Assembly: GCA_947589255.1 (NCBI GenBank) | Contig: CANQAL010000005.1 | Coordinates: 1 to 41,302, forward strand | Length of the DNA stretch: 41,302 nt | Reading direction: 5' to 3' | Origin: Candidatus Gastranaerophilales bacterium | Lineage (GTDB): Bacteria; Cyanobacteriota; Vampirovibrionia; Gastranaerophilales; Gastranaerophilaceae | Shown here: positions 682 to 40,101 of the stretch, one piece after another | Layout: the number at the start of each line of letters is the position of its first letter | Numbering within the stretch: the stretch's first letter is position 1 | Notes under the pieces: model-generated | What the model was told of the DNA's origin: nothing | Database searches by the model: none | The model's input: only the letters and a program-made list of their open reading frames with translations | Position numbers and translations under genes: made by a program

Positions 682-1204
682 AAAAATAATTGTATTTTCC
701 GGTAAGCAATTTTCCGGAAAAGACACTATTGCAAAAATTTTGTTAAACGAATTTAAATCTTTTAAACGTATAGGAATTGCTGATGCAATTAAACTTGAAT
801 ATTCTAAAAAAACAGGGTTAAGTGTTGAAGAAATTGAAAAAAATAAGTCACAATACAGGCAGGATTTAATAAATCTGGGTGATTGGGGCAGAGCACAAAA
901 TCCTGATTATTGGTTAAATTCAATTATCAAATATGACGGGAATGTTATTGTAACGGATATTAGAGTAAAACATGAACTTGATTTATTCCGCTCTTTCGGT
1001 GCTTTTTGCATAAGAGTTGAAGCATCGGAAGAAGTAAGAAGTAAAAGAGGCAGGATTGTTTCTTCAAATGACTCAACAGAAACGGACTTGGATAATATAA
1101 CTGATTGGGATTATATTATAAAAAATGAAGGAACTTATGAAGATTTAGTAAATAACACTAAAAAACTTATAACAGCAATAAAAGTCAAAATGTCGTTAAC
1201 ATAA
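668..1204 (+). CDS. P-loop nucleotide or phosphomevalonate kinase-like protein
   Basis: This 178-residue protein has an N-terminal P-loop 'GKQFSGKDT' (residues 12-20) and a second motif 'VIVTDIRVKHELDLF' followed by 'IRVEASEEVRSKRGR', which resembles the LID or base-binding part of small kinases. The pattern fits the deoxynucleoside-monophosphate kinase / phosphomevalonate kinase-like fold; dephospho-CoA kinase-like proteins look similar. Substrate is not determined. The ATG overlaps the end of rpsA by 14 bases, so it is probably translationally coupled. Its TAA stop (1202-1204) lies inside the left terminal inverted repeat of the palindromic element that follows, so the insertion may have replaced the original C-terminus. 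Confidence 0.7.
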   Translation: MKENKKIIVFSGKQFSGKDTIAKILLNEFKSFKRIGIADAIKLEYSKKTGLSVEEIEKNKSQYRQDLINLGDWGRAQNPDYWLNSIIKYDGNVIVTDIRVKHELDLFRSFGAFCIRVEASEEVRSKRGRIVSSNDSTETDLDNITDWDYIIKNEGTYEDLVNNTKKLITAIKVKMSLT

Positions 1205-1623
1205 GAAATATTATTGTTATTTTATTGTTATTTTTATTAAATTAAATAAAAAATAAAGTTTTCGACCTGATACTTCGTTTCTGTTTCACTAACCTCAACC
1301 AAAGGCTTCGTAACTCGCCTAAAGGCTCAAACAGACGAAGCCTTGATGTTGTTTCGGTAAGTGAACCTACGAAACTCCGTATATGGTTTTCAAACTTTAT
1401 TTTTTTATTTAAAATTTTGCAAATAATATAAAAATTAAAGTTCCTTGCGTAGTATAGTACAACTTCTTTGCGAAGCAGCGACAAAGCCCCGTCTGTTTGA
1501 AGCCGTTAGGCAAGTTACGGGGCTTCATGCTGAGCTTAGAAGTTATCTATACGAAGCATCAGAACGCAATTTTTATATTATTTGCATTAAAATAACAATA
1601 AAATAACAATAATATTTCTTATG
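1200..1623. mobile_element. MITE-like nested palindromic element, no coding capacity
   Basis: The ends are a perfect 35-bp inverted repeat (1200-1234 and 1589-1623), rich in TTATTGTTATT repeats. Inside are two further hairpin arms: arm 1 is closed by 1242-1261 with 1392-1412, and arm 2 by 1419-1436 with 1568-1585 (perfect 18 bp). The arm tips are diverged inverted copies of each other: 1302-1344 read in reverse matches 1484-1525. Their stems differ but stay paired (aaggcttcg/cgaagcctt against aagccccgt/acggggctt). The predicted shape is a three-way junction. No believable ORF and no obvious target-site duplication were seen. A non-autonomous transposable element is the best guess; a structured RNA is possible. 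Confidence 0.75.
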
Positions 1624-1640: not shown

Positions 1641-1680
1641 TTGACAATAGATTATGTGCAGGTTAAACTTTTTCTATAAT
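1641..1680 (+). promoter_or_regulatory. Promoter region of rplU-rpmA
   Basis: TTGACA at 1641-1646 is followed 17 bases later by TAAACT (1664-1669). A stronger -10, TATAAT, lies at 1675-1680 with TTATGT 17 bases upstream (1652-1657). Either pair could serve a sigma-70 type polymerase. The region begins 18 bases after the right end of the palindromic element. Confidence 0.6.
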
Positions 1681-1766
1681 GCATATTATTATGCATGTGT
1701 TTAGATAGGTACACCGCCCTTAAATGCTTTTATAGCTGCGGCTGCCTCAAATGAAAGGAATTTAAA
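1679..1766 (+). promoter_or_regulatory. 5' leader of rplU with hairpin
   Basis: Between the promoter and the rplU start lies a leader of about 80 bases. It opens with a perfect hairpin (atgcata / tatgcat, 1679-1685 with 1690-1696) and contains a C/G-rich patch (accgccc ... gctgcggctgcc) unusual for this AT-rich DNA. L21 leaders that regulate rplU are known in some bacteria; that this one is such an element is only inferred. The ribosome-binding site aaaggaa is at 1754-1760. Confidence 0.35.
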
Positions 1767-35096: not shown

Positions 35097-36308
35097 TTAC
35101 CCTTTTGCATTTATAATTTTTTTTACGGGAATATAAGCAAACATAAATATAATTATAAAAAATATGATCGCTGCTTTTTGTGAATATAAATCTGTAAATA
35201 TTTTAAACATCATTAAAAATAAACCGGATAATAATCCTGCTAACATACTGTTGACGGAAGATATTGTTGCCCTTGATATTGAGGGAATTAATCCGTGAAT
35301 TCTTGATAAACTCCCCACATTAAATATCATTTGAAATCCTATTGAAATACAAATAAATATGATTGTTGATATACAGATGATTATATTGTTATATTTTATT
35401 GAATTTAAAATTATTAAAAAACTTATTAAATATAATATGTAACTTATAATTCCCGCGCTTTTCAGTGTATATTTTTCCGTAAACTTTTTTGCAGATATTG
35501 AGCCTGCCGCTCTTAACATGTGATTAATAAAATAAATATATCCGAATAATATTACGGGAACTCCCGCTGATTTCATAAAAGGCTGAAAATTCCATACAAA
35601 TATACTTGTTATACCTGTTAAAATTCCGCTATATAACATAAATATATTTATTTTAGAATTTTTTAACGTTTTTTTGCATATATGTATTATCCTCATTAAA
35701 TGTAATTTAAATTTTATTTTCTTTTTATATTGAGGCAGTTTGGGCAGGGTAAATAACATTAATACGGCTATTGTATTAAATATTAATTCTATTGTTAACA
35801 GCACGGTAAATCCAAAATATTTATATAAATATGCACCGATTAAGCAACTTATTGCCGAACCCGTTGACATGTAAAAATTAAATTTACCATATTGCGGAAG
35901 CATTTGTTTGGTTGTATTGTTTGTTTTTAAATAATCATATATATATCCGTCAGATACTCCTCTATAAAAAGCTTTTGATAAACCGTATAATATTTCGCCT
36001 GATAAAATTGTCAAATAATTCGGACAAGTTAGCCATAATATTATTCTTACTATAAATAAACTGTACGAGAATATTAGTACATGTTTTCTGGGGAATATAT
36101 CTCCTATATATCCTGCAGGTATTTCAGCTATTAATCCCGTAAAGTAAAAAATGCTCTGAAATAATATGAAATCGGATAATGTTAATCCGTTTTCTACATA
36201 AAACAAATATAATACGGGAATTATGTATCTTTGTTGTTGAAATAGTACAGTTATATTTAATATATCTAATTGTTTATTATTAAAGATTTTAGAAATTTGT
36301 CCGTACAT
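35097..36308 (-). CDS. MFS transporter
   Basis: A 403-residue membrane protein with eleven to twelve predicted helices. The major-facilitator loop 2-3 motif is visible ('EIPAGYIGDIFPRKHVLI'). No substrate-specific motif is recognised. Aromatic residues and Ile are abundant, as is common in AT-rich genomes. It is followed by the GT8 gene on the same strand, 28 bases downstream, so they may form an operon; a sugar, drug or small-molecule export role is possible. Confidence 0.82.
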   Translation of the reverse strand: MYGQISKIFNNKQLDILNITVLFQQQRYIIPVLYLFYVENGLTLSDFILFQSIFYFTGLIAEIPAGYIGDIFPRKHVLIFSYSLFIVRIILWLTCPNYLTILSGEILYGLSKAFYRGVSDGYIYDYLKTNNTTKQMLPQYGKFNFYMSTGSAISCLIGAYLYKYFGFTVLLTIELIFNTIAVLMLFTLPKLPQYKKKIKFKLHLMRIIHICKKTLKNSKINIFMLYSGILTGITSIFVWNFQPFMKSAGVPVILFGYIYFINHMLRAAGSISAKKFTEKYTLKSAGIISYILYLISFLIILNSIKYNNIIICISTIIFICISIGFQMIFNVGSLSRIHGLIPSISRATISSVNSMLAGLLSGLFLMMFKIFTDLYSQKAAIIFFIIIFMFAYIPVKKIINAKG

Positions 36309-36430
36309 TATTATTCCATATTTTTGTTTATAAACATTACCGTTTTAGCTAATACTATTATATTAAATTATTTATTTGTGCAAAATTTATTAATATTTGC
36401 TAAATCTGCCGATTTTTATATAATTAACTT

Positions 36431-37969
36431 ATGTTTAATAATTATGTTAAGAAGAAAGTAAATATAATTTTTTATTTTACGTTAATTCTTTTCTTACTGT
36501 TTGGAATTTATATAAGAACAAGATTATATTTATTTAAAGCTCCATTATGGCTTGATGAAGTTATGCTTGCCCAATCTTTTATTGATAGAAACTTCTTTGA
36601 AATGTTTTTACCTTTAGATGCTTATCAAAAAGCTCCTCCTCTGTTTTGTTTTTTTGTTCTCATTATCAGAAAAATATTTGGGTTAAACGAATTATCGCTC
36701 AGATTTATTCCTTGCGTTTTTGGGGTTATTTCTTTAATTGCATTTTTGTTTTTATTAAAAGATAACATTCAAAGCAAATTGGGAATTTTAACAGGTTTTG
36801 TTTTATTTACGGTATCTCTGCCCTTGGTTTATTTTTGTTCGGAGTTTAAACCATACGGGTGTGATGTTCTGATTTGCATTCTTTTACTTATGACGTTTAA
36901 ATATCTTGATTTTAATAATATAAAAATTAAAAATTATATTTTATTATCTTTTATATCTTTATTTTTAGTGTTATTTTCATTCCCTGCTATTTTTATAATT
37001 CCTGCAATTATATTTGCTAAATTTATAAAAGATAGAAAAATATATTTAAATTGTATTTATATTTTTTCCGGTATTGCATTGGCAGGTTTATTTGTCTTTC
37101 TATCTGATTTAAATAATTATTTATTCTTAAAACACTATTGGAATAATGTTGAAAATGGTTTTTATATTATTCCCTCTTTTGGTTTTATTTGGAATTTTAT
37201 TGTTAGTTCTTGTAAGTTTTATATATATGATTTAAATACAATCTGTCCTGTTATTATTACTATTTTTATAATTATGGGTTTATTCCTTTTTATAAAAGAA
37301 AAAAAGGAAATTTCTTATATTATTATATTTATATTCTTTTTTGCCATTATTGCTTCCATTACTTCAATTTATCCGCTTAAACCAAAATTGGATCTTTTTA
37401 TGGCGCCTATTTTCATTTTGCTGATTGCAAAATCTTTTGATATTCCTTTTATTTTAAACAAATACAATAATAGTAAAATTTTAATTAATATAATTTTAAT
37501 AACTTGTCTTTTGTTTACTTTAAATTTAGATGTCCCTTATCTTAATATTAATGAAAGTGATTTGATTTATTATAATAAGTCAAGCATGGGCCGAGATAAA
37601 TCTTTGTCAGATAGAAATAAGGTAAAAGAGTATTCATTATTTCTGTTGAATAATTATAATAACAATGATAAAATTCTGGCTTCGGATGAATTTTTATTTA
37701 ATATTAAGTGGTATAAATCTTATTATAATTATCCTATAGAATTAAATATCACCACAATTCCAAGAATTGATTACAGTTTGGTTGATAGTCAAACACAACA
37801 ATTTATTGTGGAAAATAAACAAAATCATAAATTATGGTTCTTTGGCAGAAATTTTGAATATTATTTCAGATGTTCTAATTCTGATATTATTGAAAAACTT
37901 CTTAAAGAAAATAATATTAATTATGTTAAATTTCAAAATAAAAATTTATATTTAATTCATGCCGAATAA
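36431..37969 (+). CDS. GT-C (GT39/PMT_2-type) membrane glycosyltransferase
   Basis: A 512-residue multi-pass protein. The first outside loop carries 'APLWLDEVMLAQSFIDRNFF' with the W-x-D-E signature (W40, D42, E43) of ArnT/PMT_2 glycosyltransferases. 'LSLRFIPCVFGVISLIAF' and a hydrophilic C-terminal domain follow. These enzymes move a sugar from a polyprenyl-phosphate donor onto lipid A, glycan or protein. Start at ATG 36431, with no strong ribosome-binding site. Four bases before the next reading frame, so probably co-transcribed with the acyltransferase. Confidence 0.82.
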   Translation: MFNNYVKKKVNIIFYFTLILFLLFGIYIRTRLYLFKAPLWLDEVMLAQSFIDRNFFEMFLPLDAYQKAPPLFCFFVLIIRKIFGLNELSLRFIPCVFGVISLIAFLFLLKDNIQSKLGILTGFVLFTVSLPLVYFCSEFKPYGCDVLICILLLMTFKYLDFNNIKIKNYILLSFISLFLVLFSFPAIFIIPAIIFAKFIKDRKIYLNCIYIFSGIALAGLFVFLSDLNNYLFLKHYWNNVENGFYIIPSFGFIWNFIVSSCKFYIYDLNTICPVIITIFIIMGLFLFIKEKKEISYIIIFIFFFAIIASITSIYPLKPKLDLFMAPIFILLIAKSFDIPFILNKYNNSKILINIILITCLLFTLNLDVPYLNINESDLIYYNKSSMGRDKSLSDRNKVKEYSLFLLNNYNNNDKILASDEFLFNIKWYKSYYNYPIELNITTIPRIDYSLVDSQTQQFIVENKQNHKLWFFGRNFEYYFRCSNSDIIEKLLKENNINYVKFQNKNLYLIHAE

Positions 37970-37984
37970 AAAATGGGAGATAAA

Positions 37985-39046
37985 ATGGAAGGAAAACTGA
38001 AAAATATTGAATTTATAAGAATTATCGGATGTATTGCTATAATACTATTTCATTTGTTATACAATTCTGATTTAGAAATTACCAAAAACGGAAATAAAGC
38101 CGTAGATTTATTTTTTATAATTTCAGGTTTCTTTTTTATATATAAAATTAACTTAAATATATCTTTATTCCAATTTGTAAAACACAAACTAATAAGATTA
38201 TATCCTGTTATACTTTTTGCTTTTTTAATCGTTTTTATTTTATCTTTATTTGGAATATTTCATATAAATTTTTATAATGAAATATTCCTGCTGCTTGGAC
38301 TAACCGGTACTGCTTTAAGCACTAATATCTATGAAATGCCACTTGGGCAATGTTGGTATTGCTCATCATTGGTTTGGATTCTTGTGCTATTTTTTTATCT
38401 GCTTAAAAATTATAAAATTAAAAATGTTAATCTTGTTATAGCATTAGGGGTATTCTTTTGTTATTCTTTCATCCTTGATGCCCGAAACGGAATTATAAAC
38501 GGTATGACGGATAATTATTATCATATTTTTAACTTGGGTTTAATGAGAGCTTTTGGTGGAATAGGTATCGGTTATTTTATAGGGAATTGGTATAAGGATA
38601 ATTGTCAAAAATTTTTCAATTTAAAACTTGGATTTTTCCCCAAAATATATATATCTGTTTTAGAATTTATATGCTTATATTTTGTAATCAGCAATTTAAC
38701 ATTTCATAATTCGTTTTGTCCAAATCATTTTATTTTTATTATTGCTTTCATTATTTTGATAATGCTTTTCTTATTTAAAAAAGGTTATCTTTCCCAATTT
38801 TTTGATAAACAAATTTTTTGTCAGTTAGGAAAATATTCTTATTCTATTTTTGTAACACATTTAATTGTTATCTATCCGTTAAGACAATTTTACTTTGATA
38901 AAAATTGGATGGTTTTAAATCCCGGCTTGTGCTATATTTCCATTATGGCTGCTTGTATATTATTGGGAATAATAACTTATCATTTAATAGAAAAACCATT
39001 TTCGCATTATTTAAATAGAAAATTCCCTTTAATAGAAGACAAATAA
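37985..39046 (+). CDS. Acyltransferase family 3 membrane protein (OafA-like)
   Basis: A 353-residue protein with about ten membrane helices. N-terminus 'LKNIEFIRIIGCIAIILFHL' contains the family-typical R and the H used in acyl transfer, then 'AVDLFFIISGFFF'. Such proteins O-acetylate surface sugars. The start at 37985 is preferred because gggag lies five bases before it; ATG 37973 in frame lacks a site. C-terminal 'YSIFVTHLIVIYPLRQFYF' and 'YHLIEKPFSHYL' are normal family endings. In operon with the GT-C gene upstream. Confidence 0.86.
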   Translation: MEGKLKNIEFIRIIGCIAIILFHLLYNSDLEITKNGNKAVDLFFIISGFFFIYKINLNISLFQFVKHKLIRLYPVILFAFLIVFILSLFGIFHINFYNEIFLLLGLTGTALSTNIYEMPLGQCWYCSSLVWILVLFFYLLKNYKIKNVNLVIALGVFFCYSFILDARNGIINGMTDNYYHIFNLGLMRAFGGIGIGYFIGNWYKDNCQKFFNLKLGFFPKIYISVLEFICLYFVISNLTFHNSFCPNHFIFIIAFIILIMLFLFKKGYLSQFFDKQIFCQLGKYSYSIFVTHLIVIYPLRQFYFDKNWMVLNPGLCYISIMAACILLGIITYHLIEKPFSHYLNRKFPLIEDK

Positions 39047-39063
39047 AATAGAAAATTTAAAAA

Positions 39064-40101
39064 ATGAAATTAGGGAAAATTGATAATTCAACGGCTTTTA
39101 AAAGCAATTTAAATAATAAATATTTTCTTAAAAGTTTAGAAATTATTGCTGATCATCCTGCTTCTTTTATTGCGGGAACAACTCTTTTTATGTCCTCTAT
39201 CGTCAGACCTGCAGCTATTATGTTAACCCCTAAAACAGATAAAGAAAATAAAAAATATGCTGCAGTTGATTCTTTTTCATCAGGGCTTGTTAAATTCGCT
39301 ATTACCGAAATGGTGGCATTACCTATTGAAAATGCTATTAAAAATATAGATAAAGCTCCTGAAAAATTTTTAAAACCCGAGACTATTAAAAAAATGACAG
39401 AGACGGGAAAATCTTTAATTGATTCTAAGAATTATAAATTTGCTTCTCAATTAATTAAACTTTCAACAGGACTTTTAACAGCTGTTCCAAAATCATTAAT
39501 TGCCGTTGCTTTAATGCCTTTTATTATGAATATTTTTTTTCCAAAAACTCATAAGCAAAATGAAAACAAAATTAAAGATTATTCATACCCCAAAACGTAT
39601 AGTCCTGTGTTCAAACAATTTTATGATGATTCTGTCAGCTTTAAAGGATTAGAAAATTTTACTGCTAAAAATGTCAGTAAAATTTTTAATTCAAATATAT
39701 TTCAGAACTTTGTGCAAAAACATAATATAAATGATACAAATATTGCTCGAAATCTTTCTATAGCAACTGATATGCTGCTTACAGGCTCTTTTATATTGCA
39801 GACTAAAAATTCTAAAAAAATTGATGAAAAAAGAAAAAATCCGCTTATTTATAATAAAACAATTTCAACAATTTTAAGTGTTTTACTTGGCTATAAGATT
39901 GATAACTTTATTCAAAAAAATTCTGTTAAATTTATGGAAAAATTTAAAGATGCAAATATTTCTAACCCAAATCTTTCAAAATATATTCAAGGTATTAATA
40001 TTTTAAGACCCACATTAATATTTGCATTGCTTTATTATGGGATTTTACCTGTATTATCAGTATTTACAGCTGATAAAATTGATAAATATCAACAAAATTA
40101 A
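39064..40101 (+). CDS. Orphan membrane-associated protein with apparent internal duplication
   Basis: A 345-residue protein of no recognised family. It starts 'MKLGKIDNSTAFKSNLNN' (F12-K13-S14). A second such segment, 'DDSVSFKGLENF', lies mid-protein (S192-F193-K194-G195). Hydrophobic stretches ('IAGTTLFMSSIVRPAAIML', 'LIAVALMPFIMNIFF', 'PTLIFALLYYGILPVLSVF') suggest membrane association. Residues after each segment look alike: 'KTDKENKK...PIENAIKN' against 'KIDEKRKN...KIDNFIQK'. It begins 17 bases after the acyltransferase stop. It overlaps the convergent radical SAM gene by four bases. Confidence 0.7.
   Translation: MKLGKIDNSTAFKSNLNNKYFLKSLEIIADHPASFIAGTTLFMSSIVRPAAIMLTPKTDKENKKYAAVDSFSSGLVKFAITEMVALPIENAIKNIDKAPEKFLKPETIKKMTETGKSLIDSKNYKFASQLIKLSTGLLTAVPKSLIAVALMPFIMNIFFPKTHKQNENKIKDYSYPKTYSPVFKQFYDDSVSFKGLENFTAKNVSKIFNSNIFQNFVQKHNINDTNIARNLSIATDMLLTGSFILQTKNSKKIDEKRKNPLIYNKTISTILSVLLGYKIDNFIQKNSVKFMEKFKDANISNPNLSKYIQGINILRPTLIFALLYYGILPVLSVFTADKIDKYQQN

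What the first reader, a model, noticed from the sequence alone, without database searches (positions are those of the whole stretch)
1200..1623. Nested three-way palindromic element with compensatory changes between its two arms
A 35-bp perfect terminal inverted repeat encloses two hairpin arms that are diverged inverted copies of each other. Their tip stems differ in sequence but stay paired (ggcttcg/cgaagcc in one, gccccg/cggggc in the other), while the loop (ctgtttga...ttaggc.agtt) is conserved. That pattern suggests selection on structure, as in single-stranded DNA transposition or a structured RNA. It supplies the stop codon of the upstream kinase gene and lies just before the rplU promoter.
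Basis: seen in the sequence. Interest (0 to 1): 0.72.

Follow-up and report, generated by a model that had tools for sequence, protein, structure and literature searches.

The report
Genus-wide family of flipping DNA hairpins
The 424-base structure is one copy of a repeated, non-coding, hairpin-shaped piece of DNA found throughout one genus of gut bacteria (Candidatus Gastranaerophilales); its copies sit between genes, come in mirror-image pairs and have flipped in place between species, and part of its tip also occurs in an unrelated bacterial family, but what moves it is unknown.

Summary
In detail: window 1200-1623 has 35-bp perfect ends around two ~165-nt hairpins that are 65-67% identical inverted copies, folding far better than shuffles (z -16). 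It is one copy of a repeat family present in 35 of 35 same-genus genomes (1-45 hairpins each; 15 here) and 0 of 23 others. Thirty-one of 33 stem pairs show compensatory changes, while internal loops (GNA/GNA, GA/GA, CTGTTTGA/GAGTT) stay fixed. Copies lie at gene 3' ends (convergent 26, divergent 2) in either orientation, in tandem arrays and inverted pairs, and at 4 of 9 orthologous sites the hairpin is inverted in place at 93-99% identity. It works like a giant REPIN/BIME. It fails GTAG-REP membership: no conserved GTAG foot, and no Y1 transposase in element-rich genomes. A fold acting at DNA level fits better than an RNA, because orientation is free. The 35-bp perfection is local; the family-wide terminal repeat is ~15 bp, and here one end was rewritten to match the other. 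The tip loop also recurs inside unrelated giant palindromes of Comamonadaceae. How it moves is not shown.

The parts
1200..1234 (+). left end of the outer palindromic shell (35 bp here; conserved terminal core CATAAGAAATATTAT 1200-1214)
   Evidence: perfect complement of 1589-1623; terminal 15 bp shared with copies in G025, G034, G011 and G028
1239..1405 (-). hairpin unit A (A-type arm), reading strand minus
   Evidence: covariance model R1 140.2 bits at 1261-1390 minus, E 8e-29 (this sequence was in the training set); alignment A1
1304..1342 (-). tip of unit A: stem GGCTTCG/CGAAGCC around the internal loop CTGTTTGA / GAGTT and a small inner hairpin GCC...GGC
   Evidence: sequence; motif match at 1312-1334
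1418..1586 (+). hairpin unit B (B-type arm); outer stem 1418-1436 / 1568-1586 is a 19-bp perfect palindrome
   Evidence: covariance model R1 119.4 bits at 1437-1568, E 3.6e-24 (in the training set); perfect arms
1486..1523 (+). tip of unit B: stem GCCCCG/CGGGGC around CTGTTTGA / AAGTT and a small inner hairpin
   Evidence: sequence; motif match
1589..1623 (-). right end of the outer shell
   Evidence: perfect complement of 1200-1234

Best explanation
It is a non-coding, non-autonomous extragenic palindromic element. Two ~165-nt hairpin units of one family sit in opposite orientation inside an AT-rich palindromic shell: a giant analogue of a REPIN/BIME. SHOWN: the family is dispersed through one genus in many loci, alone, in tandem arrays and as inverted pairs; its fold is conserved by compensatory change around fixed unpaired loops; copies are inverted in place between species and have apparently mediated a rearrangement; a near-identical second copy exists in the same genome. 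INFERRED: the fold matters at the DNA level, as a hairpin in single-stranded (replication-fork) DNA or a cruciform. Fixed loops rich in G.A motifs plus the CTGTTTGA/GAGTT internal loop would be the recognition marks for a host or mobile-element protein acting on folded single-stranded DNA. Flips, losses and end-matching would come from template switching or recombination across the stems. Accumulation at gene 3' ends is most likely because insertions in promoters and genes are selected out. NOT KNOWN: the enzyme, if any, that places new copies.
For: R1 hits in 35/35 same-genus genomes and 0/23 others. Compensatory changes far above shuffled and slid controls. Fixed unpaired motifs although stems vary: GNA/GNA 47/55, GA/GA 47/55, GA/GA 53/55. 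Composite copies with the same ends at different loci in G000, G011, G025, G028 and G034; second G000 copy 99% identical. Site X filled in G025/G034, not in G000, with a small palindrome instead in G063. In-place inversion at sites Z, W, V and near aroA (G026 vs G019): inverted identity 0.93-0.99 against 0.71-0.79 in the same orientation. G034 joins kinase-element(inverted)-aroA flank, as expected from recombination between two copies. Context: tandem 44, convergent 26, divergent 2; co 19 / anti 25. G.T at about 3-5% of pairs and near A.C at well-paired positions (43 vs 37).
Against: No enzyme found: no Y1 transposase or RT in G000, and none shared by element-rich genomes; the named genes between nearby copies are mostly housekeeping. 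No target-site duplication seen. No clean new insertion at nucleotide level: the G000 version of site X looks like a deletion at an AAATA microhomology, and the kinase-rplU sites without the element in G060/G062 are too diverged. Several loci (aroA, 6S RNA) hold copies in many species, so old vertical inheritance plus local recombination explains part of the distribution. DNA rather than RNA level is inference.
Confidence: 0.6

Rival explanations
1. Ordinary MITE: a double-stranded-DNA element mobilised in trans by a DDE transposase that recognises the ~15-bp CATAARAAATATTAT ends; the hairpins are cargo.
For: Composites with the same ends and similar length (424-452 bp) at several loci, about five in G028.
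Against: No common target-site duplication at the composites. The hairpins disperse mostly alone, without these ends. Most other ATAAGAAATATT matches looked like chance matches in coding sequence and none marked an IS.
Confidence: 0.15
2. Structured RNA: the hairpins are transcribed from the strand carrying CTGTTTGA and act as a 3'-UTR or small RNA.
For: Strong covariation; polar loop motif; location at gene 3' ends; one neighbour site is 6S RNA.
Against: No clear orientation bias to neighbouring genes (19 co, 25 anti); frequent in-place inversion between species; G.T pairs scarce; no Rfam family at gathering score.
Confidence: 0.12
3. Bidirectional terminator or mRNA stabiliser: the hairpins are kept because they end or protect transcripts of convergent and tandem genes; mobility is ancient.
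For: 26 convergent and 44 tandem against 2 divergent contexts; many copies 11-50 nt after a stop codon; T-rich flanks; orientation-independent, as flips would allow.
Against: Does not explain the conserved polar tip loop, the tandem arrays or the copy-number range 1-45. Avoiding promoters gives the same context.
Confidence: 0.15
4. Mutation bias only: template switching during replication keeps imperfect palindromes complementary, with no selection on structure.
For: One outer end in G000 matches the other where relatives differ, so end conversion seems to happen; unique but perfect outer stems at some loci; flips need the same kind of event.
Against: Repair towards perfection should erase the fixed mismatched loops (GNA/GNA, GA/GA, CTGTTTGA/GAGTT), yet these are the best conserved parts, and the tip loop recurs in another phylum.
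Confidence: 0.1

Closest known systems
REP / REPIN / BIME elements (GTAG REPs with RAYT/TnpA_REP)
   Same: Extragenic, dispersed, imperfect palindromes with conserved mismatches; inverted pairs and tandem arrays; predominantly downstream of genes and between convergent or tandem ORFs; REP dimers lying inside a longer palindrome have been reported (PMC3733652, read); strand-specific folded ssDNA is the substrate of TnpA_REP (PMC8266576).
   Different: Unit ~165 nt instead of 20-50 nt; no conserved GTAG foot; no Y1 transposase in element-rich genomes and none found beside the copies; frequent in-place inversion; different conserved loop.
CGTC-tagged REPs (including Rickettsia RPE-4/6 and Neisseria dRS3)
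   Same: Dispersed palindromes in several phyla, predominantly head-to-head dimers, without a dedicated transposase (PMC3733652).
   Different: Those have 8-9 bp stems starting with A-T, 4-5 nt loops and a terminal unpaired CGTC. Here CGTC is internal, its C and G are paired, and it is replaced in other tips.
Bacterial MITEs (Correia/NEMIS, RUP, ERIC, bcr1)
   Same: Non-coding, intergenic, terminal inverted repeats, hairpin-forming.
   Different: No target duplication and no parent IS found; hairpins also spread without the terminal repeats.
BRE, Beta-proteobacterial repeat element (PMC3110155)
   Same: ~90-bp intergenic repeat in Bordetella and Comamonadaceae, in variable tandem numbers; possibly related to the Comamonadaceae palindromes that share the tip loop found here.
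   Different: Its sequence is not printed in the passages read, so identity with those palindromes could not be tested; it is described from Betaproteobacteria there.
Hairpin flip-flop inversions of plastid genomes (PMC6824564)
   Same: A sequence bounded by a hairpin stem is inverted in place repeatedly between species.
   Different: The plastid example read is small (9-bp stem, 5-bp loop); here the inverted unit is a ~165-nt structured repeat that is itself dispersed.
Sheared G.A / GNA hairpins of Streptomyces telomeres (PMC7205883)
   Same: GNA motifs thought to stabilise folded single-stranded DNA.
   Different: There GNA caps hairpin loops at replicon ends; here GNA/GNA is an internal loop in dispersed chromosomal repeats.

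Membership tests
GTAG REP / REPIN | conserved GTAG (or variant) tetranucleotide at the foot of the palindrome | tested here: not met
   no fixed foot motif in A1; the only GTAG-like position is the GNA internal loop, where N is G, T, C or A
GTAG REP / REPIN | associated Y1 (HUH) transposase, RAYT, in the genome | tested here: not met
   PF01797 absent from G000, G025, G034, G011, G007, G028, G022, G024 and G016; present in 11 other genus members; no R1 hit beside the eight Y1 genes examined
GTAG REP / REPIN | two palindromes in inverted orientation forming one unit | tested here: met
   A(-)B(+) composite in window; pairs in G011, G013, G025, G028, G031 and G034
GTAG REP / REPIN | extragenic, mostly 3' of genes | tested here: met
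   tandem 44, convergent 26, divergent 2; four copies overlapped an ORF call, at least one of them (the window copy) a spurious ORF within the element
CGTC REP | terminal unpaired CGTC, stem of 8-9 bp beginning with A-T, short loop | tested here: not met
   CGTC is internal with C and G paired; stems are long
MITE | terminal inverted repeats of about 10-40 bp | tested here: met
   CATAARAAATATTAT ends in composites
MITE | target-site duplication | tested here: not met
   no common direct repeat at the flanks of the composites, read by eye
MITE | parent transposase with the same ends | tested here: inconclusive
   end-motif scan of six draft genomes; the 20 matches read gave composite copies or mainly apparent chance matches in coding sequence
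Known structured RNA (Rfam) | match at gathering score | tested here: not met
   no family at gathering score for the element
BRE (betaproteobacterial repeat) | sequence similarity to the ~90-bp BRE consensus | not testable with these tools
   consensus only in a figure and supplement; no Bordetella genome was within reach

The most novel reading that the evidence does not exclude
The 8-by-5-nt internal loop 5'-CTGTTTGA / GAGTT-3' marks a superfamily of giant extragenic palindromes, alongside GTAG and CGTC REPs, present in Gastranaerophilales (Cyanobacteriota) and Comamonadaceae (Pseudomonadota). It would be recognised as folded single-stranded DNA by a still unidentified enzyme, and the palindromes flip in place.
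Probability: 0.35. Interest if true: 0.8.

Novelty: new variant of a known kind. Interest (0 to 1): 0.6.

Why it matters
REP-type repeats are widespread, but only the GTAG kind has a known enzyme. A genus-wide family with strong covariation, fixed loop motifs, no RAYT and readable in-place inversions gives a natural record of what hairpins do during replication. If the shared tip loop in two phyla is real, it points to an unknown protein that reads folded DNA, and gives a defined oligonucleotide with which to look for it.

Tried and rejected
Structured-RNA family: no Rfam gathering hit; the sub-threshold miRNA and naRNA4 hits were treated as chance. REPIN with RAYT: Y1 search negative where the element is abundant. 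Reverse transcriptase as mover: PF00078 absent from G000, G028, G022, G024, G016, G033, G013 and G031. Gene bracketed by copies as the autonomous partner: GatB, a Crp-like regulator, Obg, pilins, a metallo-hydrolase and some unnamed ORFs, no transposase. Phage or plasmid carrier: exact right end absent from viral contigs; five viral-contig matches to the tip pattern are about what chance would give by my estimate. Two Comamonadaceae palindromes gave no match in plasmids, and one of them none in phages. A strand-asymmetry test (G.T vs A.C) as a decider between RNA and DNA was inconclusive: 81 vs 54 over all pairs, 43 vs 37 at well-paired positions. Solo outer shells as a separate abundant family: only one candidate, G011:C27:7448; most other ATAAGAAATATT matches look like chance matches in coding sequence. 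Literature searches for the tip sequence found nothing relevant.

Full report
WHAT IS THERE. Window 1200-1623 lies between a deoxynucleotide kinase-like gene (668-1204; Pfam DNMK and P-mevalo_kinase) and rplU (1767-2120). Its ends 1200-1234 and 1589-1623 are perfect complements. Inside are two hairpins, A (1239-1405) and B (1418-1586), each with its own AT-rich outer stem; they are inverted copies of each other at 65-67% identity. As single-stranded DNA the whole folds at -101.6 kcal/mol against -36.0 +/- 4.1 for dinucleotide shuffles.

IT IS A REPEAT FAMILY. BLAST finds further copies in the same draft genome, including a second composite split over two contig ends (C84, C107) at 99% identity. 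A covariance model of one hairpin (R1) hits 35 of 35 same-genus genomes, 1 to 45 times each (15 in this genome), and none of 23 genomes outside the genus. These are E <= 0.001 counts with the stricter filters, in draft assemblies. Named genomes with the tip motif are mostly rabbit-gut (isolate names 'Lapin') Candidatus Gastranaerophilales MAGs, plus one goat-caecum bacterium that carries full hairpins of the same type. Copies occur alone, in tandem arrays (for example beside 5S rRNA in G000:C35 and three near-identical units in G024:C3) and as inverted A/B pairs.

THE FOLD IS CONSERVED. In 55 distinct copies, 31 of 33 predicted pairs show changes on both sides. 92.6% of cells are paired (shuffled 73.0, slid 31-47); the covariation score is 0.579 (shuffled 0.236, slid at most 0.181). 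Much of this variation separates A-type from B-type arms, so the counts are not independent events. The unpaired loops are among the most constant parts: GNA/GNA with any N in 47/55, tandem GA/GA in 47/55 and 53/55, and CTGTTTGA/GAGTT at the tip.

THE ENDS. Composites in five genomes share only about 15 terminal bases, CATAARAAATATTAT. In this genome both ends carry TGTTATTTTATTGTTATTTT, which in relatives resembles the right end only. So the perfect 35 bp reflects a recent rewriting of one end from the other, not necessarily selection. No common target duplication was seen.

DYNAMICS. The kinase-rplU site is occupied in G000 and G025. In G034 the kinase is followed by the element in reverse and then by the aroA flank that in G000 and G025 borders the second copy, as expected from recombination between two copies. 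In G060 and G062 kinase and rplU are adjacent without the element. At orthologous sites Z, W and V, and between G026 and G019 near aroA, the hairpin is inverted in place: 93-99% identical when inverted against 71-79% in the same orientation. The low flank values for the G026/G019 pair come from misplaced windows; one search gives 95-97% over the flanks. That is 4 of 9 sites: the eight, of which site X is a case where the hairpin and its outer stem differ, plus the kinase/aroA composite locus, where orientation also differs but assembly and rearrangement make it less certain and it is not counted as a flip. At site X G000 has no hairpin, most simply a deletion at an AAATA microhomology, and G063 has a short palindrome instead. 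G011:C27:7448 after 6S RNA looks like a shell with no hairpins.

CONTEXT. Of 72 copies with genes called on both sides, 44 lie between tandem, 26 between convergent and 2 between divergent genes; orientation to tandem genes is 19 co and 25 anti (simple ORF calling). This fits both purging from promoters and a 3'-end role. With the flips, it argues against a strand-specific RNA.

THE TIP MOTIF ELSEWHERE. A scan of 84,980 genomes with the exact tip pattern gave 34 stretches: Gastranaerophilales and Paenacidovorax, Hydrogenophaga, Ramlibacter and Ottowia, plus one Clostridiales match that looks like chance. With the looser CTGTTTGA-N6-36-GAGTT, Ramlibacter has 33 matches against 2 for the reversed pattern and Hydrogenophaga 5 against 0; Paenacidovorax, 8 against 6, is not enriched by this count alone. 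The inner ends pair in 40 of 49 matches in these four genomes, against 0 of 17 in a same-order control, although the pattern does not require pairing. There the tip ends large GC-rich nested palindromes, sometimes as inverted pairs. The Gastranaerophilales model matches them only at tip positions, mostly 49-90 of 132, with E 0.003 to 0.6. Common descent, transfer and convergence are all open, and a relation to BRE (PMC3110155) could not be tested.

HOW IT PROBABLY WORKS. By anatomy it works like a REPIN/BIME: an inverted pair of imperfect palindromes with polar unpaired marks, which TnpA_REP reads as folded ssDNA in the known case (PMC8266576). It is not a member of that family: no GTAG foot, and no Y1 transposase in element-rich genomes. 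Nesting of REP dimers in longer palindromes is already reported (PMC3733652). I therefore call it a new variant of a known kind. The ssDNA/cruciform level is inferred from free orientation, scarce G.T pairs and G.A-type loops, and the moving enzyme is unknown.

LIMITS. The genomes are draft MAGs. Copies at contig ends are cut, and orientation at such loci (C84/C107) is less certain than at sites inside contigs. Counts of pairs and mismatches are over related sequences. The mobility of the hairpins is inferred from distribution, not from a clean insertion event.

Noticed in passing
L208, L215, L220, L210, L238, L271-L282, L290: The tip internal loop CTGTTTGA/GAGTT with freely varying flanking stems recurs in giant GC-rich intergenic palindromes of Comamonadaceae (33 vs 2 control in Ramlibacter), sometimes as inverted pairs about 300-350 bp apart.
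   Followed up: partly
L017 1590-1650; L018; L076: In G025 and G034 the A-arm tip is replaced by a longer unrelated loop with CCGGCTATGCCGG, in both copies of G025, so tips are exchanged as modules and copies within a genome evolve together.
   Followed up: partly
L118 1998-2530: G034 joins kinase-element(inverted)-aroA flank, a chromosomal rearrangement apparently caused by recombination between two copies.
   Followed up: partly
L010 1-370 (G000:C35): A complete 5S rRNA gene is followed by a second partial 5S fragment interrupted by a small hairpin, next to two tandem elements.
   Followed up: no
L115 403-575; L172: One conserved element site is directly downstream of 6S RNA (Rfam RF00013, 48.8 bits); in G011 that position holds an apparent empty outer shell.
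   Followed up: partly
L027 1282-1500; L080 200-570: Between tandem A-type units lie other, longer hairpins with CTGTTTGA...GAGTT tips, suggesting more subfamilies.
   Followed up: no
window 36001-40000: Markedly low G+C (0.228-0.249) compared with 0.26-0.36 in the rest of the window.
   Followed up: no
window 1641-1766: The rplU upstream region (promoter TTGACA and an AGATAGGTA...GCGGCTGCCTCAA leader) is conserved across the genus and is not part of the element.
   Followed up: no
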